64,000 nucleotides of DNA. Source: Methylocystis parvus OBBP. Lineage in GTDB: Bacteria > Pseudomonadota > Alphaproteobacteria > Rhizobiales > Beijerinckiaceae. Within the stretch, counting starts at the first letter, position 1, and every line of letters starts with the position of its first letter. Under the pieces are notes generated by a model. It was given only the letters and a program-made list of their open reading frames with translations, did not search any database and had not been told where the DNA came from. The stretch covers positions 62,001 to 126,000 of the forward strand of contig NZ_CP092969.1 in the NCBI RefSeq assembly GCF_027571405.1, in the 5' to 3' direction. Below are positions 41,021 to 52,714 of the stretch, piece after piece. Both the position numbers and the translations under genes were made by a program.

Positions 41021-41299
41021 TCAACTCGTAAGGGTCGACACAGAAGGCGCCGGAGAGCGTGGCTTCTCGGGACGGGACTTGCGCTTCGGCGTCGGGGCGA
41101 GCCCCTCTCGCTGTGCCTGCTTGCGGGCAAGCTTGCGCGCACGCCGAATGGCTTCCGCCTTCTCTCTCGTACGCCTCTCCGAGGGCTTCTCATAAGCGCG
41201 GCGTTGCTTCATTTCCCGAAAAACGCCTTCGCGCTGCATTTTCTTCTTTAACACGCGAAGCGCCTGATCGACATTGTTGTCGCGAACCAAAACCTGCAC
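41021..41299 (-). CDS. rpsU: 30S ribosomal protein bS21
   Basis: A 92-aa protein beginning [20 protein letters not shown] with the family signature [20 protein letters not shown] ..[20 protein letters not shown] and a basic tail. bS21 assists mRNA binding on the small subunit. Alphaproteobacteria often carry several rpsU copies, some next to cold-shock genes. This copy lies in the paralogue-rich region between cold-shock cassettes, so it is probably an additional, non-essential copy. Confidence 0.92.
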
Positions 41300-43335: not shown

Positions 43336-43354
43336 TGCTCCCATTTTGGGAGCA
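43336..43354 (+). promoter_or_regulatory. higBA operator palindrome
   Basis: TGCTCCCA-TTT-TGGGAGCA, perfect 8-bp arms, lies 14 nt before the higB ATG. This position fits autoregulation by HigA or HigBA. Confidence 0.7.
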
Positions 43355-43368
43355 TGATAGCTTGCAAC

Positions 43369-43698
43369 ATGCGAATCATCGCCCGGCGCACCCTGCGCGA
43401 GTTCGTCGAGAAGCGCGCCGGACACAAGGATCAACCTGCGCTGAAGGCTGCGCTCGACGCCTGGTTCGACGAAGTGCGCAAAGCGCACTGGACGAGCGCC
43501 GCCGATGTGAAAGGATTATACCGCACTGCAAGCGTCGTGACCGCCGAGCGCGTGGTTTTCAACATCAAAGGCAATGACTATCGCCTTGTCGTGGCGATCG
43601 ACTACGAAAAGAGCATCGTCTGGATCAAATGGATCGGCTCGCACGCGGACTACGACCGCATCGACGTGAAAGAGGTGGAGCATGACGGCCGAACTTAA
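43369..43698 (+). CDS. higB: HigB-family toxin
   Basis: A 109-aa ribosome-dependent mRNA interferase of the HigB family, ATG at 43369 (MRIIARRTLREFVEKRAGHK). Characteristic blocks are LKAALDAWFDEVRKAHWTSA, VVFNIKGNDYRLVVAIDYEK and VWIKWIGSHADYDRIDVKEV. It is intact and overlaps higA by 17 bp. The operator palindrome sits just upstream. Confidence 0.92.
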   Translation: MRIIARRTLREFVEKRAGHKDQPALKAALDAWFDEVRKAHWTSAADVKGLYRTASVVTAERVVFNIKGNDYRLVVAIDYEKSIVWIKWIGSHADYDRIDVKEVEHDGRT

Positions 43699-44059
43699 AC
43701 CCATCCGTTCAAACGCGGATTACGAGACCGCGTTAGCCGAGATTGAACGCCTATGGGGGGCAAAGGCTGGAACGCGCGAGGGCGACCGGCTTGATGTGCT
43801 TGCCACGCTCATTGACTCCTATGAGAGCGAACACTATCCGATCGATCCGCCTGACCCGATTGAAGCGATCAAATTTCGTATGGAGCAGCAGGGGCTGACA
43901 CGGCGCGACCTGGAGACGATGCTCGGCACTCGCGCGCGCGTCGCCGAAGTCCTGAACCGCAAGCGCGATCTCTCCATCGGCATGATCCGGAGATTGCACG
44001 AGCGGCTTGGCATTTCGGCGGAAGTGTTGATCCGCCCGGTCCGCAAGACCGCTGCTTGA
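43682..44059 (+). CDS. higA: HigA-family antitoxin
   Basis: A 125-aa protein with an N-terminal acidic, toxin-wrapping region (IERLWGAKAGTREGDRLDVL, PDPIEAIKFRMEQQ) and a C-terminal XRE helix-turn-helix (LTRRDLETMLGTRARVAEVL, NRKRDLSIGMIRRLHERLGI). It pairs with higB in the usual toxin-first order. Intact. Confidence 0.92.
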   Translation: MTAELKPIRSNADYETALAEIERLWGAKAGTREGDRLDVLATLIDSYESEHYPIDPPDPIEAIKFRMEQQGLTRRDLETMLGTRARVAEVLNRKRDLSIGMIRRLHERLGISAEVLIRPVRKTAA

Positions 44060-44318
44060 GAATGCGGCCCAAAAAAGTGGGTTGGCTGAGGCAGTCACGC
44101 CGCTTCCCGCCAGTAGCAGAACAAAGCGTTCTCCATAGTGGGTCTCGCGCTGTATCGGACCTCCGCTTCCACGCGCTATGGCGCGATATTATACGCCAGT
44201 CTACGCCCCCGAGGACGGTTCTCCAGATTATGGCAAGCTCGAAGCAAGCGGCGAATTACGGTCGGAGAATCCTATGCTTATGCGCGCAGTACTCGGTTAT
44301 CGGGCAATTCGAAATTGC

Positions 44319-44334
44319 ATGCATATAAATGCAT
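44319..44334 (+). promoter_or_regulatory. palindromic operator candidate, site 1
   Basis: ATGCATATAAATGCAT (ATGCAT arms) touches the stop codon of the XRE gene. An identical 16-mer lies at 44,636-44,651. Confidence 0.6.
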
Positions 44335-44609
44335 TATTTTACAATCTTCAGTGCAGCCTCAATCATGGCCCTGAAATGCGACGACTTGAGCGCCGCCTGC
44401 TCGACCCTTGAGGCAAGCTCGCCTGGGGATATTCTACCGCCGTAAGTCTCCAGAAGTCTGTCTATTTTCGCCTGTAGTTCCGGCCTTGGCGTGGATTTCG
44501 AGCGCAAGACCTTCGACAGATGTCCTTGGCTGATGCCAAGTTTTTTGGCGACCTCAGCCTGTGTCCAGTTTTCGCGCCGAATGATGCGCTTGATCTTTGA
44601 AATCGTCAT
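44334..44609 (-). CDS. XRE-family regulator of the defence island
   Basis: A 91-aa protein from the ATG at 44609 (MTISKIKRIIRRENWTQAEV). The helix-turn-helix is WTQAEVAKKLGISQGHLSKV, followed by LRSKSTPRPELQAKIDRLLE and a C-terminal helix pair. It is divergent from the OGG-like glycosylase gene; the shared 74-bp region contains the 16-bp palindrome, its likely operator. It probably represses itself and the glycosylase gene. Confidence 0.8.
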   Translation of the reverse strand: MTISKIKRIIRRENWTQAEVAKKLGISQGHLSKVLRSKSTPRPELQAKIDRLLETYGGRISPGELASRVEQAALKSSHFRAMIEAALKIVK

Positions 44610-44635
44610 TTTCGGGTTTGCATCCGGTCGGATTA

Positions 44636-44651
44636 ATGCATATAAATGCAT
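44636..44651 (+). promoter_or_regulatory. palindromic operator candidate, site 2
   Basis: The identical 16-mer ATGCATATAAATGCAT lies in the divergent control region, 26 bp before the XRE start and 32 bp before the chosen glycosylase start, followed by a third partial TATAAA repeat. Its presence argues against a start codon at 44636 for the glycosylase. Confidence 0.65.
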
Positions 44652-44683
44652 ATAAACGCAAGCAGATATCTCGACCGGTCGCC

Positions 44684-45493
44684 ATGCAGGAAATGCTCGC
44701 TCTCATCCATTCGAAGCTCGAGCGATTGATTTTGCCCGGCCCAACCCACCAAGTCATGCCTGGCGTGAAGTGGGGCGGGTTCGACGAGCTCTTCACCCCC
44801 GCGTACTGGCGCGGTCAGGTTTGGCAGGCATTGTTGGCCGACCGTTATCAAAGCTTGCGGCTTGGGCGAAACCTCATCGAAGAGGTCGCGGCATGTCTGC
44901 TCGGTGGATACGGGATGCCCGCAGAGCTCGGGCTCGCGGCGTTCGACCGGCTACGCGAGCGTGGAAGGCTCGATCAGCCAACGTCGAACCAGGTCCTCGA
45001 GGCGGACCTGTCCGAGCCGCTGATCATCAGCGGGTGCGCGGTCCGGTATCGCTTTCCCCGTCAAAAAGCCCGGCATCTCTCAGCCTGTCTCGCCGCGCTC
45101 CTTGAATTCGACGAGCCTGAGCGCGACGCCGATCTGCGCAACCAGTTGATGAGGCTGCCAGGCGTCGGACCGAAGACGGCCTCATGGATCGTACGGAACC
45201 ATCGGCAATCGAACGACGTCGCCATTCTCGACGTTCACATTGTTCGCGCCGGCGCTCTCATGGGGATCATGCGGCCCGACGCTTCGCCTGCTCGGGACTA
45301 CTTCGGTCTCGAAAACAAATTCCTGGAATTCGCAAACGCGATCGACGTTCCGGCCGGAATCCTCGACGGTCTGATGTGGCAACACATGCGACTGTTGTCG
45401 TCGGTCGCGAGAAGCGAGATGCCTGCGTTGTCGCAAGGCTACCCGAGCCTGTGCGTCAGTTTGCCTCGGGCGGACGATAGACCCATGCAATAG
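44684..45493 (+). CDS. OGG-like DNA N-glycosylase/lyase (HhH-GPD)
   Basis: A 269-aa protein from the ATG at 44684 (MQEMLALIHSKLERL). The C-terminal half contains the helix-hairpin-helix and GPD motif RLPGVGPKTASWIV..VAILDVHIVRAG, with Lys164 (Schiff-base nucleophile in OGG1-type enzymes) and Asp183 (catalytic). It probably removes an oxidised or otherwise modified purine and nicks the strand. OGG-type proteins also occur in type IV CBASS loci beside QueC homologues. Its 3' end overlaps the convergent nuclease gene by 38 bp, tying it to that operon. Confidence 0.85.
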   Translation: MQEMLALIHSKLERLILPGPTHQVMPGVKWGGFDELFTPAYWRGQVWQALLADRYQSLRLGRNLIEEVAACLLGGYGMPAELGLAAFDRLRERGRLDQPTSNQVLEADLSEPLIISGCAVRYRFPRQKARHLSACLAALLEFDEPERDADLRNQLMRLPGVGPKTASWIVRNHRQSNDVAILDVHIVRAGALMGIMRPDASPARDYFGLENKFLEFANAIDVPAGILDGLMWQHMRLLSSVARSEMPALSQGYPSLCVSLPRADDRPMQ

Positions 45494-46538
45494 AGGAGGT
45501 TTTAGCGGCCTCCGACAGGCGCGCGCTGGCGGTACGAGCCCCTACTCTGACTTTCACCCATTGGTCTTGCGTACGCCCGGGCGCCCCAAGCCAAAGGTAC
45601 AGTCCATCCACCAGCTCCCGCACCAGCTCCCGCGCGGCGTTACGAACCGACTTCATCGGCGTTTCGCGGAGGTCGTCAGCCTTTCTGCCAATCGAGCGCA
45701 TCGCGCCCGTCGCAGTGCGCAGCAGGACGAGTTCAGCGCTCTCGTCGCCGACGCCGCGAGCGAGCGTCTCTCCCAAACTCAAGAGTTCGTCGAGCTTCCC
45801 GAGCATCTCGTGAGCGTTGCGAGACGCCGATCGCTCGGCCCCGATTCTGGCTGACTTGACGGATTGAAATTTGATCGCGAGCAGATCCGCCTCGCGCTCG
45901 ACTTCGTCTGCATAGGTTTTCAGATCGTCAGCCCATTTCGGTTCGGACGAAGACAAGGGCTGCGGACAGCGCAGCGGGAATTGCTTGGCCAGCGCTTTCG
46001 TGACGCTTAAGGATATGTCGAGACATGCCCCGAGAAGTTCGACGGTTTCGTCGTTCCGGAGCAATGTTTGAGCATCGGGGGTTAGTTCGAAGAGCATGCT
46101 ATGCAGATCGTGCTCGATCGCCTTTGTCGTCGCGAGTACCGTCTTGACCGTCGCCTCTGCAACGGCATCAGCGACGAGAGCCTCCAGTTCCCCGATGCTG
46201 GCAAGCGTTACATTGGTCTGTCGAACCGCCGCGATGGCGCCGGCCTGAAAGCCCGCCTCGCAGAGCAGAAAGGCGCGGTCGGCGCCCAAATCCTGCGCGA
46301 TCTGATACAACGTCAACACATGAGCCTTTGAAACGGGCACCTTCCAGTCCTTGCACTCGACAATCCATAGTATGGGAATGCTACCAAGGCTCGTACGAAC
46401 GAGGACGTCGATCTCGTGGCGCCCACGAGCTCCATCGAGACATGGCTCGATAGCCGCGTCGAATCCCATTCGTTTGAAAACCGCGGCCGCTCTTTCCTGA
46501 TACTGGCGCCATGAAATGCTGGCTCGTGTTTCTTCCAT
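45456..46538 (-). CDS. Mrr-like PD-(D/E)XK endonuclease
   Basis: A 360-aa protein from the ATG at 46538, with GAGAGG 5 nt upstream. The N-terminal domain has the restriction-endonuclease-like core: HEIDVLVR (Asp44), then WIVECKDWKVPVS (Glu61-x-Lys63), and QIAQDLGADRAFLLCEAGFQ. The remainder is a long helical region (about 120-330) without known motifs, which may bind DNA or partners. It is last in the operon, 44 nt after the nitroreductase-like gene. Likely the DNA-cutting effector; a VRR or Holliday-junction-type nuclease is the alternative. Confidence 0.8.
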   Translation of the reverse strand: MEETRASISWRQYQERAAAVFKRMGFDAAIEPCLDGARGRHEIDVLVRTSLGSIPILWIVECKDWKVPVSKAHVLTLYQIAQDLGADRAFLLCEAGFQAGAIAAVRQTNVTLASIGELEALVADAVAEATVKTVLATTKAIEHDLHSMLFELTPDAQTLLRNDETVELLGACLDISLSVTKALAKQFPLRCPQPLSSSEPKWADDLKTYADEVEREADLLAIKFQSVKSARIGAERSASRNAHEMLGKLDELLSLGETLARGVGDESAELVLLRTATGAMRSIGRKADDLRETPMKSVRNAARELVRELVDGLYLWLGAPGRTQDQWVKVRVGARTASARLSEAAKTSSIAWVYRPPEAN

Positions 46539-46582
46539 CAGCACCTCTCAAGATCCAAGTCTCGCCGGCCGAGGGCGCTACT

Positions 46583-47266
46583 CTATGGGCGCCGCCCGAC
46601 GACGGCGACGCCAACCGCAAATACGGTGTGATCTCCTGCTGGCCGCAACGCTTCGACCACCTCGTTCCCATGGATCCCCAGCGCGCAAAAAGCCAACCGA
46701 TAAGCCGCAGCGCACATATGGAGCGCTTGCAGCAAAGCTCCAGCATCGCGCCAAATCAGAGAAAGCGAATTCTCATAGGCTGCGTCGTAAATTGAGGGAT
46801 TTGCGAGAAGCACGAGGGAATATGCCCGTGCCAGCGGCTTCATCTCCCGAATACGCTCATTCAGTCGAACGATCGGCGCCGCCGCGCCAACGCGCAACAG
46901 CATGACTCTGCTCGAGGAAGGCGAGTAGGCGACCAACTGCGGGCGCGCTCCTGGCGAGATCAGGACAAGATCGATGCCGTGCAACGCTCCTGCGGCCATC
47001 GTCGGGCGTGCAAACCGTGGTATTCCATCTTTCGACCACGCGGCATAGTTTTGAGTAGCATAAGCGACGCAATTTACGAGTTCACGCAACGACGTAGGCG
47101 CAAGGGCATTCGCCGAACGACGATTCTCGACGACCTCATCAAATATAGTCGGAATTGGCGGGACGATCGCCGGAATCCGCGCACCAAAGCGAACCGGCCA
47201 GGCCGCTCGTGCCGCCGATCCCACTCTGCGGCGAGGCTTCGGTTCGAGATCAATAGGGCAATTCAC
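46583..47266 (-). CDS. SagB/nitroreductase-like protein
   Basis: A 227-aa protein. The frame is open upstream but overlaps queC, so I chose the GTG at 47266, which lies 14 bp before the end of queC (VNCPIDLEPKP). Signs of the nitroreductase/SagB fold are RRSANALAPTSLRELVNCVA near residue 50, RPTMAAGALHGIDLVLIS, and SLSLIWRDAGALLQALHMCA near the C-terminus, where such proteins bind FMN. SagB-type members oxidise heterocycles on peptides; others reduce nitro compounds or flavins. The substrate here is unknown. Confidence 0.65.
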   Translation of the reverse strand: MNCPIDLEPKPRRRVGSAARAAWPVRFGARIPAIVPPIPTIFDEVVENRRSANALAPTSLRELVNCVAYATQNYAAWSKDGIPRFARPTMAAGALHGIDLVLISPGARPQLVAYSPSSSRVMLLRVGAAAPIVRLNERIREMKPLARAYSLVLLANPSIYDAAYENSLSLIWRDAGALLQALHMCAAAYRLAFCALGIHGNEVVEALRPAGDHTVFAVGVAVVGRRP

Positions 47267-47846
47267 CGAGCGCCTCGAAAGTCCGATAATGCTTGCGGCA
47301 TCCTCCACATTCGCCACAGGCGTGCTCGGCCTTATGGCAGGAGTGCGACCAAGCAAGCAACGACATCGGGATCTGCGACTTGCGAATGAGCTCGACGCCG
47401 TCGAGGTCGATCGCAGGCGCGTCAAGCGACATATTTCCCTCCTGCATCTGAAGAACGCAGCTCAATGCCTCGACGAACTCCCGCCTGCCATCCACGTGAT
47501 GGCCGTCGGTTCGCAGCGCCCCAATCAGCAGTTTTCTTGCGCCAAGCGGTAGAACGGCGCCCGCCGCGACCGTCACCAGCAGCTGATTTCGAAACGGCCA
47601 CCATTCCGGTTTAGGCGCAATGTCGAGCTTCGGCGCGCCGGCGAGATCGCCGCTACCGAGGAGGCCGAGCTGGTCCAATCGCAGAACCAGATGCCGAATG
47701 CCGAGCTCGCCCGCGACCACCGAGGCTGCCCTGATCTCACCCGCAGCCGGCCTTTGGCCGTAGTCGATCGTGACCGCCACCTCGGGCCGCTGCCAGTAGG
47801 CGATGGCAACCGAATCCATGCCGCCAGACAGCAGCAACGCCCTCAT
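47250..47846 (-). CDS. QueC-like 7-cyano-7-deazaguanine synthase homologue
   Basis: A 198-aa protein from the ATG at 47846, which overlaps the preceding stop (ATGA). The PP-loop SGGMDS is at residues 6-11. FRNQLLVTVAAGAVLPLGAR matches the QueC RN motif, and the C-terminal SHSCHKAEHACGECGGCRKH supplies four zinc-binding Cys. QueC turns carboxy-deazaguanine into preQ0 via an amide intermediate. No queD, queE or queF lies nearby, so this is not a queuosine operon. QueC homologues recur in defence loci (QatC of Qat, type IV CBASS). Confidence 0.88.
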   Translation of the reverse strand: MRALLLSGGMDSVAIAYWQRPEVAVTIDYGQRPAAGEIRAASVVAGELGIRHLVLRLDQLGLLGSGDLAGAPKLDIAPKPEWWPFRNQLLVTVAAGAVLPLGARKLLIGALRTDGHHVDGRREFVEALSCVLQMQEGNMSLDAPAIDLDGVELIRKSQIPMSLLAWSHSCHKAEHACGECGGCRKHYRTFEALGELPY

Positions 47847-49039
47847 ACGCGCCACGCCAGATGATGCAGGAGCGAGACAAGATCGCCCCCGATCCGACAA
47901 CCGGACCCCTCGAGCATTTTCAAGTCCTCATCCGAGACATTCTGCGCAAAGGCGTAAACGGGCTTGCCCTTGGCCCTTGCGTAGCCCACCTCGAACAAGG
48001 TGCCGCTGTCTATGCCATCGACGATCGCAAAGACGACCTCGCAGCCGTCGAGCCCCGCGAGATCTGCGGAAGCAACGATGTCGGCTGGGCCAGGGCCGAC
48101 CTGGTGCACCGGCGAAAATACCGAAAGGCCCATCGACTCCAGGCAGCGCTTGATCTCGTCGACAAGCCAGCGCTGGGCAAGGGTGAAAAACGGGCCCGCG
48201 AGGTACACTCGGCCAGGATGGAAAGCGCACTCCCGGAATTGGAGTGCCGCGAGAGCAGCTCGCGGCCTGATCGGGAGGGCCCTGGTCAGCGAATAATCAG
48301 CGACCGCCTTGGAGGCTAAGAGAGCTGCCTCGTGCGGGTCAGCTTGCTCCACCCCCCAATACAAGGCGAAGGCGGCCGCAAAGACGTCGCCTGAGCCGAT
48401 CGTCCACACCGAATCCGATTGGAACGCCGGAACAAATTTCGGCGCGCTCGCCCCCTGCACGACATAGGCGCCTTCGGCACCCGCTTTGACGACGACAACC
48501 TTAGCGCCCTCCTGAACAAGCACGCGTGCGGCATCCACAGGGTCGGCTTTCCGGCCCAGTTCCACCGCTTCGCGTCGGTTTGCGACAATCGCCAAATGCT
48601 CGGTCGATGATCCGTTATCGCCAAAAGGCTCGGGCGCGAAAGCCGACTGCGGATCGTAGACCGTGCGACGGGCCTTCGATTTGACTGTCGATTCCAGCAT
48701 GCCGAACCGCAAGACAATGTCGCCCTCGGCTTCGATCGGCGACGTCGGCTTGATCCGCCCCAATCCCGGCCGAATGGTCGGGACCGCCATCGGATGCACA
48801 TAGTCGAACTCGATCGATTGCTCGCCCTTCTCCGGACGAAACGAGATGCCATAGACGTTTGCTTGCGCGGTCATACGAAGCGCAAGTTCGTCGGACGTCC
48901 TCGTGCGAAGCACGACATCCGCGCCACCGCCGGTCAATGCGCAGGCTGCCCGCCCTGCAGAGCCGAACACCTGTTCCCAGTCCGGCCATAGGCAGCGCTC
49001 TGCGTACACCCCACCCGCTACGACGATCGTGGAGGTCAT
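47843..49039 (-). CDS. PfkB-type kinase fused to nucleoside 2-deoxyribosyltransferase
   Basis: A 398-aa fusion. Residues 1-265 are a ribokinase/PfkB-like domain ending in the signature SVWTIGSGDVFAAAFALYWG, where Asp218 is the expected catalytic base. Residues about 277-398 are a nucleoside 2-deoxyribosyltransferase domain: RVYLAGPFFTLAQRWLVDEI, Asp341/Asp344 in FAIVDGIDSGTLFE, nucleophile Glu350 in LFEVGYARAKGKPVYAF. The expected chemistry is cleavage or transfer of a nucleoside's sugar plus phosphorylation of a sugar or nucleoside. It overlaps both neighbours by 4 bp, so it is translationally coupled to the 127-aa gene and queC. Confidence 0.88.
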   Translation of the reverse strand: MTSTIVVAGGVYAERCLWPDWEQVFGSAGRAACALTGGGADVVLRTRTSDELALRMTAQANVYGISFRPEKGEQSIEFDYVHPMAVPTIRPGLGRIKPTSPIEAEGDIVLRFGMLESTVKSKARRTVYDPQSAFAPEPFGDNGSSTEHLAIVANRREAVELGRKADPVDAARVLVQEGAKVVVVKAGAEGAYVVQGASAPKFVPAFQSDSVWTIGSGDVFAAAFALYWGVEQADPHEAALLASKAVADYSLTRALPIRPRAALAALQFRECAFHPGRVYLAGPFFTLAQRWLVDEIKRCLESMGLSVFSPVHQVGPGPADIVASADLAGLDGCEVVFAIVDGIDSGTLFEVGYARAKGKPVYAFAQNVSDEDLKMLEGSGCRIGGDLVSLLHHLAWRV

Positions 49040-49419
49040 ACGGGCTGAACCTGCACATCGACGCGCCCACCCTGAATTCCAAGAACGACCGCCTCGTAAT
49101 TGACGCCCTGAGCGGTAATGCAGGCGATAAGCTGCGCCATCGATGGCGGCGTCAGCGAGCCAAGAATCGCGTTGCCGCCGGTCACAACGATCAACTGTTT
49201 CGGCGGTCCCGGAACGTAACGAACCTCCAGGACATCGTTGACCCTGATCGTCGTCACGACCGTGCGGTCTGGCGAGTTGACCACTGTAAGTTCAACGACA
49301 TTGCACGGCGAATCGGGCGGCAACGGTTGCCCGCCACCCGCTCCTTTTGCGCCCAACGGCTTGATCGGCTTAGGGGCGGGTCGTGGCGAAGTGTCCGGAT
49401 ATTTATCGCCGCTCGACAT
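49036..49419 (-). CDS. 127-aa first gene of the QueC operon
   Basis: ATG at 49419 (MSSGDKYPDTSPRPAPKPIK). The N-terminal 45 residues are low-complexity, Pro/Gly-rich and likely disordered. The C-terminal 80 residues form a beta-rich domain (VVELTVVNSPDRTVVTTIRV, NDVLEVRYVPGPPKQLIVVT, ILGSLTPPSMAQLIACITAQ, YEAVVLGIQGGRVDVQVQPV) that vaguely recalls HIRAN-like barrels. It ends in an ATGA overlap with the kinase-NDT gene. The disordered head could be a modification target for the downstream enzymes; that is speculation. Confidence 0.7.
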   Translation of the reverse strand: MSSGDKYPDTSPRPAPKPIKPLGAKGAGGGQPLPPDSPCNVVELTVVNSPDRTVVTTIRVNDVLEVRYVPGPPKQLIVVTGGNAILGSLTPPSMAQLIACITAQGVNYEAVVLGIQGGRVDVQVQPV

Positions 49420-49644
49420 GTCTACTCCGGTTGCCTTTGTGAGGCGCAATTCTTCGATTCAAACCCGGTGACAATCAAGCCGCCGCCATTCATCGTCGAA
49501 GCTCAGACGGTCAAACTGGCCTCTGTCGTTTGCGAGGTGGAAGCGGTCAACGCTGCGCCTAGTCGACACATGATGTGAATGTCTCTATCCAATGTCACAA
49601 AAAAGGGCAGCGGACGACCGAGAGCACAAGTCACCACGCGATGT

Positions 49645-50106
49645 CTAGCGAAATCGGAGTCCGCGCAAGGCTGCGATCTTTGCGCCGGCGAGCGGTAAAT
49701 CCAATTGAGCTTCACGGGAACTCCGCGCTTCGATGTTTGTACGAATTTCCACGAGAAGGCGCTCCAAGTGCACGATCACCATACAATCGTGAAAGGGAAC
49801 GCTGTCGAGCGGCGCAAACAGAACGTCGTCGCGCGTGATGCAGACGACTTGAGCGACGTGAGGCGGCTGCAAATGCCGCCCGACTTCATTGAACATTTTT
49901 TCTGCAACGTGCGTGAAATGGGATACGGGCACTGCGAAATCGCGTACTGCCCGCGCAATAACCGCAAGCGCAACAACTTCTTCGAACGAGTATCGGCTTG
50001 AGCGCGCATCCCGCCCAAAAATCGGCGGAAGTGCCTTCTTCCAGTGCCGCAACATCTCCTTGGAGATTCCGACAAGGTCCAGTACCTCGGCCGCTTCGAA
50101 ACGCAT
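49645..50106 (-). CDS. MerR-like helix-turn-helix regulator
   Basis: A 153-aa protein from the ATG at 50106 (MRFEAAEVLDLVGISKEMLR), with the MerR recognition pattern HWKKALPPIFGRDARSSRYS. The C-terminal part is helical and beta (VHLERLLVEIRTNIEARSSR) with no Cys cluster, so a metal-sensing role is unlikely. It is upstream of the QueC operon on the same strand (225 bp gap) and divergent from the 138-aa/HD gene pair. It probably regulates one or both. Confidence 0.72.
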   Translation of the reverse strand: MRFEAAEVLDLVGISKEMLRHWKKALPPIFGRDARSSRYSFEEVVALAVIARAVRDFAVPVSHFTHVAEKMFNEVGRHLQPPHVAQVVCITRDDVLFAPLDSVPFHDCMVIVHLERLLVEIRTNIEARSSREAQLDLPLAGAKIAALRGLRFR

Positions 50107-50150
50107 GATTCGACTCCAGGAGGGTACCAGCGCAAAATGTTTGAGCGCGC

Positions 50151-50185
50151 TAGAAATGGGGTTGATCCCACCTAGAAATGGGGTT
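50151..50185 (+). promoter_or_regulatory. paired direct repeats in the merR divergent region
   Basis: TAGAAATGGGGTT occurs at 50,151-50,163 and 50,173-50,185, 22 bp apart (two helical turns), within the 132-bp gap between the MerR-like gene and the 138-aa gene. A likely binding site for the regulator or overlapping promoters. Confidence 0.6.
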
Positions 50186-50238
50186 AACCACATTTTAATA
50201 TCCGATTCGAAGAATTCGGGAAAGCGCGGGAGAGTGCC

Positions 50239-50655
50239 ATGACGAGCAATTTCGAACAGGCGGAGTTGCTGACGGCCCTTTGGAAGCTGGGCGCGGACAC
50301 GGCGCGTTTGCCGACGTCGCACGGCATCCTCGACCGGGCGCTCAAGGAGTGCCTGAACGAACTGCCTCCAGACCTTGCCAAAAATCTGTCATTCGGCGTC
50401 ACGGGAGTCGGGCTCAGATGCTACGAATTGCCAGCAATTCTGCTGGCGGCTCAGGAAGCGCTGATTACGAGCGAGCCGAACCCAACATACTTCTCGAGCT
50501 TGGTTACGCTTGATGACGACACCGCGCGCCAGATTGTCGTCGGCTTTGGCCTTTCGACCCAAAAGGCGACCGAGATCGGAAAGCGATTGAAGCAAACAGT
50601 CGACCAAATCCGGGCTCAGACAGCAACGATTTCAGACCAACTCTCAGCGGCCTGA
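50239..50655 (+). CDS. hypothetical protein upstream of HD phosphohydrolase
   Basis: A 138-aa protein, ATG at 50239 after GGGAGAG. Mostly helical (FEQAELLTALWKLGADTARL, LAKNLSFGVTGVGLRCYELP, ALITSEPNPTYFSSLVTLDD, ATEIGKRLKQTVDQIRAQTA). It ends 10 bp before the HD-domain gene, so the two form an operon and may interact. No recognised domain. Confidence 0.65.
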   Translation: MTSNFEQAELLTALWKLGADTARLPTSHGILDRALKECLNELPPDLAKNLSFGVTGVGLRCYELPAILLAAQEALITSEPNPTYFSSLVTLDDDTARQIVVGFGLSTQKATEIGKRLKQTVDQIRAQTATISDQLSAA

Positions 50656-50665
50656 GGCCGTCGTT

Positions 50666-51901
50666 TTGCAAGCTAAAGAACTCAAGAGCCGAGTTCGGGC
50701 AAGCACGTCGGCGCTGAGCGAGCGTATCGACGCCTTAGTCGCAGATTGGCTTAAGCCCCTTCTTGCCAATATTGATCGCGGCTGTCTTCCGGAATTCAGG
50801 CCAAAGCAGGTCAACGACCCGATCTGGGGCACAATTGAGCTGCTCCCCTGGGAAGTCGCGTTGCTCGATACGAATCTGTTGCAGCGAATGCGCGGCGTCC
50901 GTCAACTCGGCTTAGCCCAGCTCGTGTTTCCGAGTGCAAGCTACGACCGCCTCGAACACATCATCGGAACCGTCGGCGCCGTCGAAGAAACCCTGCGCGC
51001 GCTCTCAAGACAGATTGAGCGCTGGAACCGGGACACGCGCGACAGTCCCTTGCCGTCAGTCAGCGACAAAGACCGTTACGCCATCAGGCTCGCAGCGTTG
51101 CTGCACGACATCGGTCACGGGCCGTTCAGCCATGCCATTGAACCGGTCATGCAGACCGACGCTGCCTTGCCTTCGTCAGAATCCGATTCACCGGCGCCAG
51201 ATTGGCGCGACGAGCTGAACACCCTGCAATTTCTCCTGAAGGATCTCTACCAGCTCAACGCCTCGCCATCGGTCTCCGAAGCCATCGCCGTCATGATGGT
51301 GCTTTCACCGTCGCTGACCAAAGTCTTAGCGAGCGATGCTATCTTCACCGAACGAGGCCGACCAGCCGAGGAGTTGCAGGTCATCATCGTCGCCGCAATA
51401 ATCGGCGCTGTGGACGGTCCAGGCGCCAGCCACTTGTCGGCCCTAATCAGCAGCCAAATAGACGCCGACAAATTAGATTACCTTGCGCGCGACGCATACC
51501 ACGCAGGGCTCGAGATCGGGTTTGACACCAGCAGGCTGCTGGCGCGTCTTGAGCTGCTCGCTGTGCGAGCGGACAATCTTGACGACGGCTTGGTCGACCT
51601 GCGCAAGCGGGCCTCTGAATCGCCCGATGGTCGCTTCTATCAAATAGGAATTGCTGCGGCAGGATTCGGTTCATTCGAACAAATGCTGATTGGACGCACG
51701 TTCCTATATGACCGGCTCTACCATCATCACAAGGTACGTGCTGCCGAGGCTACGGCGCAGCGCCTTATTCTGGTCGCTCAACGGGATAGAAAGCGCCGGT
51801 TCGAGCTGGACGAAATCTTTCTTGGCGTCGCCGACGACACCTTCTTGGGTTGTGGTGCAATCTTTGCGGATAGCGACGCGATGTGGCTGGCATTTCGTTA
51901 C
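50666..51901 (+). pseudogene. HD-domain phosphohydrolase (dNTPase/SAMHD1-like), 3' end replaced by IS6
   Basis: About 412 native residues. The HD metal site is visible: His98 in YDRLEHIIGTV, HD at 147-148 in ALLHDIGHGPFSH, and Asp in SSQIDADKLDYLARDAYHAG, the pattern of dGTPase/SAMHD1-like enzymes that hydrolyse dNTPs. The only in-frame start near the upstream gene is a TTG at 50666. From 51,902 the frame runs into the IS6 terminal repeat and continues to 51979 as antisense of the IS transposase, so about 26 foreign residues replace the true C-terminus. Catalytic residues are retained, so activity is possible. Confidence 0.82.
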
Positions 51902-52714
51902 GATCAGGCAGCGAGCACCGCACTCCAGATTTCGGGCGCGGTTGTCCCCACGGCTCTAAATTTGCTCAGTGCGAATTGACCCTTCCTGATGCGATGCATG
52001 AGTTCGACGCCGGCGATCGTGATCGCCGCATGTCGGAATCGCTTGAACCCGAGCATAGGCCCCAAACGAAGCTTGATGGATCGGTGGTCCTGTTCAATGA
52101 GATTATTCAGGTATTTCGAAGATCGAATTCGAGTCCGTACGCCGCCGGCTCGATGCTGTGTGAGAAGTTCGCGCGCCGCCCGATGTGACGCCTGATATCC
52201 GTCGAGCGTGATTTTGCCCGGCGGCCGTCCGTGGCGCGCGAACGCACGACGGAAAAACGCTTTGGCGGCGGCGACGTCTCGCTTGGCGCGCAGCAAAAAA
52301 TCCACCGTTTTCCCCGCCTTGTCGACGGCGCGGTAGAGATAGACCCAGCGTCCCTTGATCTTGACGTAGGTCTCATCGACGCGCCACGATCCGCCGACTT
52401 GGCGCGCGAAACGGTTCCACCGCTTTTCGAACTCCGGAACGTAGCGCTGAACCCAGCGCATGATGGTCGTGTGGGCCAGGGACAAGCCGCGCTCCGCCAT
52501 CATTTCCACGAGATCTCGGAAGCTGAGCTTGTATCGCAGATACCAGCGCACGCAGAGAACTATGATTTCGCGGTCGAAATGGCGTCCTTTGAAAAGATCG
52601 TCCACGCTCGGCATCGCCCATTGCCCCAACGTCCTTTGCCACCATGCAGGGATTATGTCCCGCTCACGCCGTTCGCGCCAGAACCATCTGGAACGCGGTG
52701 CTCGCTGCCTGATC
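51902..52714 (-). mobile_element. IS6-family element with 20-bp perfect inverted ends
   Basis: GATCAGGCAGCGAGCACCGC at 51,902-51,921 and its exact complement at 52,695-52,714 bound an 813-bp element with one transposase gene. The outside 8-mers differ (TTCGTTAC left, CCAGCGCT right), so there is no target duplication. The flanking gene fragments are unrelated, which implies a deletion or recombination at insertion. Confidence 0.88.
51904..52614 (-). CDS. IS6-family transposase
   Basis: A 236-aa DDE transposase from the ATG at 52614 (MPSVDDLFKGRHFDREIIVL). Catalytic motifs are WRVDETYVKIKGRWVYLYRA, KITLDGYQ and LIEQDHRSIKLRLGPMLGFK. The C-terminus ends TAPEIWSAVLAA inside the terminal repeat. 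It appears intact. IS6 elements move by replicative transposition or targeted conservative recombination. Confidence 0.92.
   Translation of the reverse strand: MPSVDDLFKGRHFDREIIVLCVRWYLRYKLSFRDLVEMMAERGLSLAHTTIMRWVQRYVPEFEKRWNRFARQVGGSWRVDETYVKIKGRWVYLYRAVDKAGKTVDFLLRAKRDVAAAKAFFRRAFARHGRPPGKITLDGYQASHRAARELLTQHRAGGVRTRIRSSKYLNNLIEQDHRSIKLRLGPMLGFKRFRHAAITIAGVELMHRIRKGQFALSKFRAVGTTAPEIWSAVLAA

What the first reader, a model, noticed from the sequence alone, without database searches (positions are those of the whole stretch)
44319..50106. Candidate undescribed QueC-centred defence system: 127-aa protein, PfkB-NDT, QueC, SagB-like, Mrr-like nuclease, with OGG-like glycosylase
Five minus-strand genes from 49,419 to 45,456 are joined by 4-bp stop/start overlaps, a 17-bp overlap and a 44-bp gap, and converge with an OGG-like glycosylase whose end overlaps the last gene by 38 bp. 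The content combines a deazaguanine-type PP-loop enzyme, a kinase/deoxyribosyltransferase fusion, a flavin-type oxidoreductase, a PD-(D/E)XK nuclease and a base-excision glycosylase. QueC and OGG homologues are known from type IV CBASS and QueC from Qat, but no CD-NTase, TGT, TatD or Qat ATPase is visible here. I infer a system that makes or senses a modified nucleobase and cuts DNA. It is bordered by toxin-antitoxin genes, an RHS locus and transposons.
Basis: partly seen in the sequence, partly recalled or inferred. Interest (0 to 1): 0.92.

Follow-up and report, generated by a model that had tools for sequence, protein, structure and literature searches.

The report
QueC-based protein-capping defence operon
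A mobile bacterial gene cluster, found in scattered bacteria and archaea, probably attaches a modified nucleobase to the front end of a small DNA-binding-type protein as part of an anti-virus system, a trick known so far from only two other immune systems.

Summary
In detail: genes, overlaps and the OGG convergence are confirmed. The locus lies on a 248-kb Methylocystis parvus plasmid. The set recurs: in 66 type A loci (mostly Proteobacteria; also an Acidobacteria MAG, a cyanobacterium, three haloarchaea) the 127-aa protein, PfkB-NDT and QueC genes occur in 66 of 66, OGG in 61, SagB-like in 54. The Mrr nuclease is in 4 of 86 loci, so it is accessory.

The key is the 127-aa protein: a HIRAN-fold domain behind a flexible tail with an almost invariant start, M-S-G-(S/G). 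This resembles MGGS and MGTS, the N-termini of the protein partners of QueC enzymes in type IV CBASS and Qat. A sister architecture (20 loci) has instead a TIR-like protein starting MGG in 20 of 20, beside a TIR fused to a Cap10-like TGT domain.

I infer N-terminal nucleobase-protein conjugation. The SagB-like protein resembles azoline oxidases, suggesting an oxazole cap on Ser2. The QueC-PfkB pair is published as 'cluster 4, purine salvage'; I found no paper on the partner, sister system or mechanism. Defence activity is untested.

The parts
49036..49419 (-). p127: tail MSSGDKYPD... (residues 1-38) plus HIRAN-fold domain (about 39-127); proposed N-terminally modified partner of the QueC-like enzyme
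47843..49039 (-). PfkB-NDT fusion: ribokinase-like part with GSGD at 215-218; nucleoside deoxyribosyltransferase domain with GTLFE at 346-350 (E350)
   Evidence: Pfam; PDB ribokinase 1e-7 and NDT 4.3e-7; motif positions.
47250..47846 (-). QueC-like PP-loop enzyme: SGGMDS 7-12, YGQ 29-31, PFRN 84-87, HVDG 117-120 where canonical QueC has YPDC, CHx5CxxCxGCxK from C170
   Evidence: Pfam 2.7e-25; NCBIfam QueC 77.6 bits against a cut-off of 150.3; PDB QueC 3.3e-8, Cap9 8.8e-7; motif positions.
46583..47266 (-). SagB-type FMN dehydrogenase-like protein (TTG start; NCBI uses GTG at 47317)
   Evidence: TIGR03605 2.1e-5, below cut-off; profile of six relatives: best PDB match CyaGox/ThcOx 1.8e-13; model pLDDT 94.5, Foldseek ThcOx 2.6e-11.
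45456..46544 (-). Mrr-like PD-(D/E)XK nuclease, E44xD46...E63-C-K65 in numbering from GTG; accessory
   Evidence: Mrr_cat 9.1e-12; motif positions. Relatives only in L034, L109, L111 among 86 loci; in L109 and L111 it follows QueC with a 4-bp overlap, in the SagB position.
44684..45493 (+). OGG-like HhH glycosylase with catalytic-type Lys (GVGPKTA from 160) and Asp (ILDVH from 181)
   Evidence: Ogg-HhH 3.7e-10; PDB 8-oxoguanine glycosylase 3.4e-5; both motifs in the first OGG hit of 81 of 81 loci that carry one.
44334..44651 (-). XRE-type regulator divergent from OGG (NCBI start at 44609)
   Evidence: HTH_3 5.2e-9; a relative is present in 37 of 66 type A loci.
49645..50106 (-). MerR-like small protein upstream of the operon; membership unsure
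   Evidence: MerR_1 E 0.04 only; no relative in the other loci.
50666..51979 (+). HD-domain protein, possible accessory
   Evidence: HD 4e-6; relatives beside duplicated cores in L074 (6.5e-27) and L065 (1.9e-8).

Best explanation
The locus is a mobile accessory (most likely anti-phage) system built on N-terminal modification of a protein by a repurposed QueC enzyme. Proposed steps: (1) the initiator Met of p127 is removed, exposing Ser2-Gly3 (Ser2-Ser3 in the window) on a flexible tail; (2) the QueC-like enzyme, using ATP, joins a 7-deazaguanine carboxylate (CDG from the host queuosine pathway, or a relative of it) to that N-terminal amine, as Cap9 does for the CD-NTase of type IV CBASS; (3) in loci with the SagB-like flavoenzyme, the new amide is activated a second time (QueC's normal amide-to-nitrile step), the Ser2/Thr2 oxygen closes an oxazoline, and the SagB-like enzyme oxidises it to an oxazole; (4) the PfkB-NDT enzyme acts on the base (adds or removes a deoxyribose-phosphate) to switch the cap; (5) the HIRAN domain of p127 engages DNA ends or gapped DNA of the invader, and DNA-acting partners (OGG; here also the Mrr nuclease; elsewhere dGTPase or TIR proteins) carry out the attack. 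Shown here: gene set, recurrence, conserved N-terminus, predicted folds. Inferred: all chemistry and the defence role. Step 2 is the best supported; steps 3 to 5 are hypotheses.
For: p127 co-occurs with the QueC-like gene in 66 of 66 type A loci (loci were found through PfkB-NDT, so this is conditional on it). N-terminus: of 56 p127 genes examined, 41 have a single ATG ahead of the domain; residue 2 is S 36, T 2, G 2, A 1 and residue 3 is G 38, S 3. In the 30 non-redundant single-ATG sequences, S2-G3 occurs in 22 against a mean of 1.7 and a maximum of 7 in 5000 tail shuffles. Of 27 protein clusters from a large protein database (it includes some of the same genes), 23 start MSG, 2 MSS, 1 MGG and 1 MGC (a short start). 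Control: 168 conserved non-core ORFs whose first start is ATG give SG in 1 and [SGTA]G in 7. In type B the TIR-like gene beside QueC starts MGG in 20 of 20 (one with a GTG or TTG start), and the TIR-TGT partner's best PDB match is Cap10 (1.5e-9) and its PADLOC match the TGT model (2.5e-22). Cap10 binds a 7-deazaguanine-capped N-terminus (PMC11996544, abstract). Cap9 and QatB precedents: PMC13279940. SagB-like family: best matches are azoline oxidases by sequence and by fold. SagB-positive loci have Ser or Thr at residue 2 in 55 of 55 p127 genes, SagB-negative ones in 9 of 15 after one start is corrected. A queuosine-precursor-type transporter (Vut_1, 1e-9) lies 3' of SagB in L115, with relatives in L056 and L060. 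Canonical QueC is present in 34 of 36 host genomes tested (24 of 26 type A, 10 of 10 type B). Flanks include Gabija genes in L042, L051, L060, L105, ThsB-like TIR genes and dGTPase genes.
Against: No experiment. Type A QueC has HxDG where canonical QueC has YPDC, so its base may not be CDG. Two of 36 host genomes (G409, G410) lack a canonical QueC; no convincing QueE was seen in five (G398, G404, G409, G410, G421) and no PTPS/QueD in 4 of 12 (G401, G402, G404, G409). These models miss divergent members, so this is weak either way. The SagB/Ser2 association rests on few independent events (3-4 changes on the QueC tree), and nine SagB-negative genes also have Ser2. The Lys-Tyr pair that I recall as important in azoline oxidases is KY in only 19 of 54 (AY 14, CY 10, others 5, no match 6), and AY in the window itself. 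Generic nitroreductases score close to the azoline oxidases. p127's N-terminal residue is mostly Ser, whereas CBASS and Qat use Gly; the window has S3, not G3. No TGT-type reader is present in type A. HIRAN similarity is by predicted fold only. No formal enrichment of defence genes was computed.
Confidence: 0.55

Rival explanations
1. Purine or deazapurine salvage: QueC-like and PfkB-NDT make or recycle a nucleoside, as suggested in print for QueC cluster 4.
For: PMC13329287 names this pairing (about 89% of cluster 4 neighbourhoods hold PF00294-PF05014) and calls it likely purine salvage. The NDT signature is found in 57 of 66 type A loci and the kinase GSGD-type motif in 64 of 66. A Vut_1 transporter is next to the operon in L115.
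Against: Does not explain p127 in 66 of 66 type A loci, its fixed N-terminus and HIRAN-like fold, OGG in 61 of 66, the SagB-like enzyme, or the TIR/TGT/SLATT sister system. Long PfkB-NDT relatives are sporadic: 6 of 397 other genomes of the phylum (5 full-length, one over residues 6-312), and not in the one congener drawn. Eighteen of the loci are from plasmid records other than the window's and two from viral contigs.
Confidence: 0.12
2. Modified-nucleotide or DNA-base restriction: QueC makes a base analogue, NDT and PfkB turn it into a deoxynucleotide that poisons or marks DNA, and OGG and Mrr act on DNA that carries or lacks it.
For: NDT plus kinase plus OGG plus nuclease is a coherent set; a dGTPase occurs in 14 of 66 type A loci and directly follows QueC in L104.
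Against: No TGT-type enzyme in type A and no other DNA-base-making partner noticed among the recurrent clusters (by eye; a D12 adenine methylase is in 14 of 66); Mrr in 4 of 86 loci; leaves p127's N-terminus and SagB unexplained; the NDT signature GTxxExGYA was found in 0 of 20 type B loci although the PfkB-NDT gene is kept.
Confidence: 0.15
3. RiPP-like biosynthesis: p127 is a precursor or carrier on whose N-terminus a small molecule (deazaguanine-azole) is built and released.
For: SagB-like and ATP-dependent enzymes beside a small protein with a fixed modification-prone end; azoline-oxidase similarity.
Against: The folded domain is conserved at the C-terminal end and the variable tail lies behind the fixed N-terminus, the opposite of leader-core layout; no exporter or peptidase gene was noticed among the recurrent clusters (by eye); OGG is conserved in 61 of 66.
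Confidence: 0.08
4. p127 is not a substrate: its MSG start only helps translation or complex formation, and QueC plays a structural or unrelated catalytic role.
For: Small residues after Met are favoured in general (recalled); no QatC reaction could be reconstituted in vitro (PMC13279940).
Against: S2-G3 in 22 of 30 against 1 of 168 control ORFs, and the same placement (MGG beside QueC) in the unrelated type B partner.
Confidence: 0.1

Closest known systems
Type IV CBASS (Cap9 QueC-like, Cap10 TGT-like, CD-NTase)
   Same: QueC-family enzyme next to a partner with a small-residue N-terminus (MGGS there, MSG here); OGG-like gene (its presence in type IV CBASS is recalled, from no call). Type B carries a Cap10-like TGT domain.
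   Different: No CD-NTase in the ten window proteins scanned; HIRAN-like partner; PfkB-NDT; SagB-like azoline-oxidase homologue; no TGT in type A.
Qat (QatA-QatD)
   Same: QueC-family enzyme plus a partner with a disordered tail and fixed N-terminus (MGTS in QatB).
   Different: No QatA ATPase or TatD; QatB is helical, p127 is HIRAN-like; QueC here is short (198 aa), about half of QatC's length.
QueC family cluster 4 (Libby et al. 2026, PMC13329287)
   Same: Same signature CHx5CxxCxGCxK, YGQ...E, PfkB-NDT neighbour, HTH neighbour. Type A QueC is very probably this cluster.
   Different: Published as likely purine salvage, with no partner protein named in the main text I read (supplements not seen). 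Here a p127 partner, OGG, SagB-like enzyme and a sister TIR system are added and another role is proposed. The YGQ-E spacing in the window is 5 residues, printed as 6.
Azole-modified peptide systems (SagB, McbC, cyanobactin oxidase ThcOx)
   Same: SagB-like protein shares fold and best sequence match with azoline oxidases.
   Different: No YcaO cyclodehydratase hit in the window proteins and none noticed among the recurrent clusters (by eye); if the proposed chemistry is right, QueC supplies the cyclodehydration.

Membership tests
[quoted passage not shown]
   77.6 bits; the genome's other QueC scores 230.9 bits on PF06508 against 88.7.
[quoted passage not shown]
   HVDG at 117-120; HxDG in 66 of 66 type A.
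QueC cluster 4 of PMC13329287 | SGGxDS and CHx5CxxCxGCxK | tested here: met
   Window motifs; both by regular expression in 63 of 66 type A loci, the Cys motif alone in 64.
QueC cluster 4 of PMC13329287 | Adjacent PF00294-PF05014 protein | tested here: met
   Pfam hits, 4-bp overlap. Membership in the published network itself was not tested.
Type IV CBASS | CD-NTase gene in the operon | tested here: not met
   None among ten proteins scanned, 44.3-52.0 kb.
Type IV CBASS | Cap10/TGT gene | tested here: not met
   None among the ten window proteins; TIR-TGT profile in 0 of 66 type A and 20 of 20 type B loci.
Type IV CBASS | Partner protein conjugated with 7-deazaguanine at its N-terminus | not testable with these tools
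   Only the sequence prerequisite (fixed small-residue N-terminus) was met.
Qat | QatA KAP ATPase and QatD TatD nuclease | tested here: not met
   No such Pfam hit among ten proteins.
SagB-type azoline oxidase | Curated cut-off of TIGR03605 (78.4 bits) | tested here: not met
   24.1 bits for the window protein.
SagB-type azoline oxidase | Closest solved relatives are azoline oxidases | tested here: met
   CyaGox/ThcOx 1.8e-13 (profile) and 2.6e-11 (fold); generic nitroreductases follow closely (3.7e-10).
SagB-type azoline oxidase | Lys-Tyr pair (recalled as important, from no call) | tested here: inconclusive
   KY 19, AY 14, CY 10, others 5, no match 6 of 54; AY in the window.
HIRAN domain | HIRAN fold | tested here: met
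Anti-phage defence system | Protects a host against phage | not testable with these tools
   No assay; among p127, PfkB-NDT, QueC, SagB-like, Mrr and OGG only QueC has a PADLOC hit below 0.01 (2.9e-13).

The most novel reading that the evidence does not exclude
Two unrecognised immune architectures (type A with a HIRAN protein, type B with TIR and TIR-TGT proteins) use QueC enzymes to put a nucleobase on the N-terminus of a partner. In type A the same ATP-dependent enzyme and a SagB-type flavoenzyme then build a deazaguanine-oxazole cap from the N-terminal Ser or Thr: an azole protein cap made without a YcaO cyclodehydratase.
Probability: 0.25. Interest if true: 0.95.

Novelty: new variant of a known kind. 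Interest (0 to 1): 0.8.

Why it matters
Nucleobase-protein conjugation by QueC enzymes was shown in type IV CBASS and is suspected in Qat. The present data point to two more architectures with unrelated protein partners, one spread across bacteria and haloarchaea, which would make the fixed small-residue N-terminus beside a QueC gene a general signature. It makes an open question in print (what QueC-family proteins do in other defence operons, PMC13279940; what cluster 4 is for) directly testable by mass spectrometry of a 127-aa protein.

Tried and rejected
Rejected: Mrr as the core nuclease (4 of 86 loci). Type IV CBASS or Qat membership (no CD-NTase, TGT, KAP ATPase or TatD among ten proteins). 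Housekeeping queuosine gene. The 127-aa protein as an unconserved ORF (66 of 66).

Counting notes: 86 loci = window, 65 of genome contigs, 18 of plasmids, 2 viral; L102, the window's own plasmid record, was left out. Of 72 plasmid records with a match (36 covering 80% or more of the query) I fetched 19 regions, L102 included. Several loci are near-copies (for example L086, L088 and L107 have identical QueC). In one search the p127 start was chosen by eye in 13 loci (L038, L045, L046, L047, L048, L052, L070, L073, L075, L079, L103, L114, L119); without them SagB-positive genes have Ser/Thr2 in 45 of 45 and SagB-negative in 6 of 10 (Fisher 6e-4). The 'N' at residue 2 in one L106 gene comes from the last-ATG rule; with the upstream ATG (MSGM) the Fisher value is 3.8e-5 instead of 5.4e-6. 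Motif counts use the first hit of each locus (SagB: all hits). The host-genome searches used 36 genomes (26 with type A, 10 with type B; PTPS 12), not all.


Full report
What was checked. The window is part of the 248-kb plasmid of Methylocystis parvus BRCS2 (NZ_CP044332.1, 100% identity over PfkB-NDT and over 44200-50300). Profile searches agree with its names, with one weak case: the SagB model hits at E 2.1e-5, below its cut-off.

It is not the housekeeping queuosine gene. The same genome has a canonical QueC on its largest contig (230.9 bits on PF06508 against 88.7 here). The window QueC fails the NCBIfam QueC cut-off (77.6 against 150.3) and has HxDG where canonical QueC has YPDC (for the motif, for the window). 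Its C-terminal signature CHx5CxxCxGCxK is that of cluster 4 of Libby et al. 2026 (PMC13329287; parts 1-3 of 5 and passages read), which is paired with a PfkB-NDT protein in about 89% of neighbourhoods and labelled likely purine salvage.

Recurrence. An alignment of PfkB-NDT (A1) found 65 loci in one genome per species and two in viral contigs; a protein search found 72 plasmid records with a match, 36 of them over at least 80% of the query, of which I fetched 19 regions, one being the window's own record. With the window this gives 86 distinct loci. Using profiles built from the clustered neighbours they fall into two architectures. Type A (66): p127 66, PfkB-NDT 66, QueC 66, OGG 61, SagB-like 54, small XRE regulator 37, dGTPase 14, D12 adenine methylase 14. 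Gene order p127 - PfkB-NDT - QueC (- SagB) on one strand holds in 66 of 66 (in two loci with duplicated cores the SagB counted belongs to the other copy). OGG is upstream on the same strand in 35 and downstream convergent in 26. Type B (20): PfkB-NDT, TIR-TGT fusion, OGG, QueC, ThsB-like TIR 20 each, TPR-S protein 19, SLATT protein 16 (domains of one representative each). QueC of types A and B form two groups separated by long branches (support 100). The loci are sporadic: in 397 other genomes of the phylum, 6 have a long PfkB-NDT relative. Hosts of type A are mostly Proteobacteria and include one cyanobacterial and three haloarchaeal plasmids and one 4-kb contig of an Acidobacteria MAG; L067 and L106 have no named phylum.

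The Mrr nuclease is accessory. Relatives occur in L034 (about 5 kb from QueC) and right after QueC in the Agrobacterium and Rhizobium loci L109 and L111, where it takes the place of SagB with a 4-bp overlap. In Moraxella (L104) a dGTPase takes that place. So the position after QueC looks like a slot for exchangeable DNA- or nucleotide-acting enzymes.

The N-terminus. The tail is variable, but its first residues are not. Of 56 genes, 41 have only one ATG ahead of the domain: residue 2 is S 36, T 2, G 2, A 1; residue 3 is G 38, S 3; with the later loci, 52 of 70 genes have one ATG, and residue 3 is G 49, S 3. After redundancy removal, 22 of 30 have S2-G3 against a shuffle mean of 1.7 (maximum 7 in 5000). 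A large protein database gave 27 clusters, some of them the same genes: 23 MSG, 2 MSS, 1 MGG, 1 MGC. Among 168 conserved non-core ORFs whose first start is ATG, one starts MSG. In type B the gene directly after QueC encodes a ThsB-like TIR protein that starts MGG[SGD] in 20 of 20 loci. In type IV CBASS, Cap9 attaches 7-deazaguanine to the Gly exposed by MGGS, and a G2D change in the MGTS start of QatB abolishes Qat defence (PMC13279940, parts 1-3 of 6 read). Cap10 is a TGT-like protein that binds the capped N-terminus (PMC11996544, abstract only), and the TGT half of the type B TIR-TGT protein is closest to Cap10 (PDB E 1.5e-9, next best archaeosine TGT 0.0071; PADLOC TGT 2.5e-22). The same rule, a QueC enzyme beside a partner with a small-residue N-terminus on a flexible lead, thus holds for four partners of different fold: CD-NTase, QatB, TIR-like, HIRAN-like.

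SagB and a chemical idea. The SagB-like family's best solved relatives are the cyanobactin oxidase ThcOx/CyaGox (1.8e-13 by profile; 2.6e-11 by fold, TM 0.70), followed by general nitroreductases, BmdC and McbC. Cyanobactin oxidases turn thiazolines into thiazoles and some also oxazolines into oxazoles (PMC5108345, passages). QueC itself uses ATP in two consecutive reactions, first to make an amide, then the nitrile (PMC13329287). If the first step joins the base to Ser2, the second activation could let the Ser oxygen close an oxazoline, which a SagB-type enzyme could oxidise. In agreement, all 55 p127 genes of SagB-positive loci have Ser (53) or Thr (2) at residue 2, while the 15 in SagB-negative loci have Ser 9, Gly 4, Ala 1, Cys 1 (one start corrected). 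The Fisher value (3.8e-5; 6e-4 without the loci whose start was chosen by eye) is inflated by kinship: SagB changes only 3-4 times on the QueC tree. The Tyr of the expected Lys-Tyr pair is kept (invariant Y164 in A7), the Lys is not (19 of 54 KY, AY in the window). This step is a hypothesis.

Other members. OGG keeps the catalytic-type Lys and Asp in 81 of 81 loci that carry it. The NDT signature GTxxExGYA was found in 57 of 66 type A loci and in 0 of 20 type B (a strict pattern, so some misses may be variants). A Vut_1 transporter, tied to queuosine salvage by the record's GO line and with a Pfam match, follows SagB in the Roseivivax plasmid L115 and has relatives in L056 and L060, which fits a deazaguanine substrate. 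Of 36 host genomes 34 have a canonical QueC; the two without it (G409, G410, both type A) speak against an absolute need for the host's own pathway, and QueE or PTPS models fail in further genomes.

Defence. Content (TIR, TGT, SLATT, Mrr, OGG), plasmid and viral-contig homes, sporadic spread, and flanking Gabija genes in four loci (L042, L051, L060: with one representative of each gene scored; L105) favour defence. There was no matched control for flanks, and no assay.

Verdict. The main claim that can be tested at once is a covalent nucleobase on Ser2 of p127.

Noticed in passing
L080-L097, L107, L117 (20 loci): Type B: PfkB-NDT without the NDT signature, TIR fused to a Cap10-like TGT domain, OGG, QueC and an MGG-starting ThsB-like TIR protein, with TPR-S and SLATT proteins. 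PADLOC hit only single proteins of it; probably an undescribed TIR system read out through an N-terminal nucleobase.
   Followed up: partly
L060:4569-8312, L034, L054, L055, L056, L057; L111:8713-11880 by eye: A dGTPase gene next to a conserved 470-500-aa protein without Pfam hit (cluster c30; PADLOC also none for the L060 copy), in L056 and L060 also a Vut_1 transporter. Could be a separate deazaguanine-linked system.
   Followed up: no
window 50239-51979: Two-gene unit with an HD-domain protein; relatives of the HD protein lie beside duplicated cores in L074 and L065; the L074 ORF also carries a PRTase-CE domain.
   Followed up: partly
window 43354-44059: HigB-like toxin and helix-turn-helix antitoxin pair (annotated in NZ_CP044332.1); relatives of both also lie near the type A loci L076 and L077.
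   Followed up: no
window 41021-41299: The plasmid carries a 30S ribosomal protein S21 gene (rpsU) as annotated in NZ_CP044332.1.
   Followed up: no
L073, L106, L119, L065, L074: Duplicated cores: two p127 or two PfkB-NDT genes in one locus, some with differing N-termini.
   Followed up: no
L100, L101, L113: Haloarchaeal p127 proteins with, by eye, two repeats of the domain behind Gly/Ser-rich or long acidic tails starting MGGG or MCGG; no OGG or SagB profile hit in the stretches fetched; L101 has ThsB-like TIR genes nearby.
   Followed up: partly
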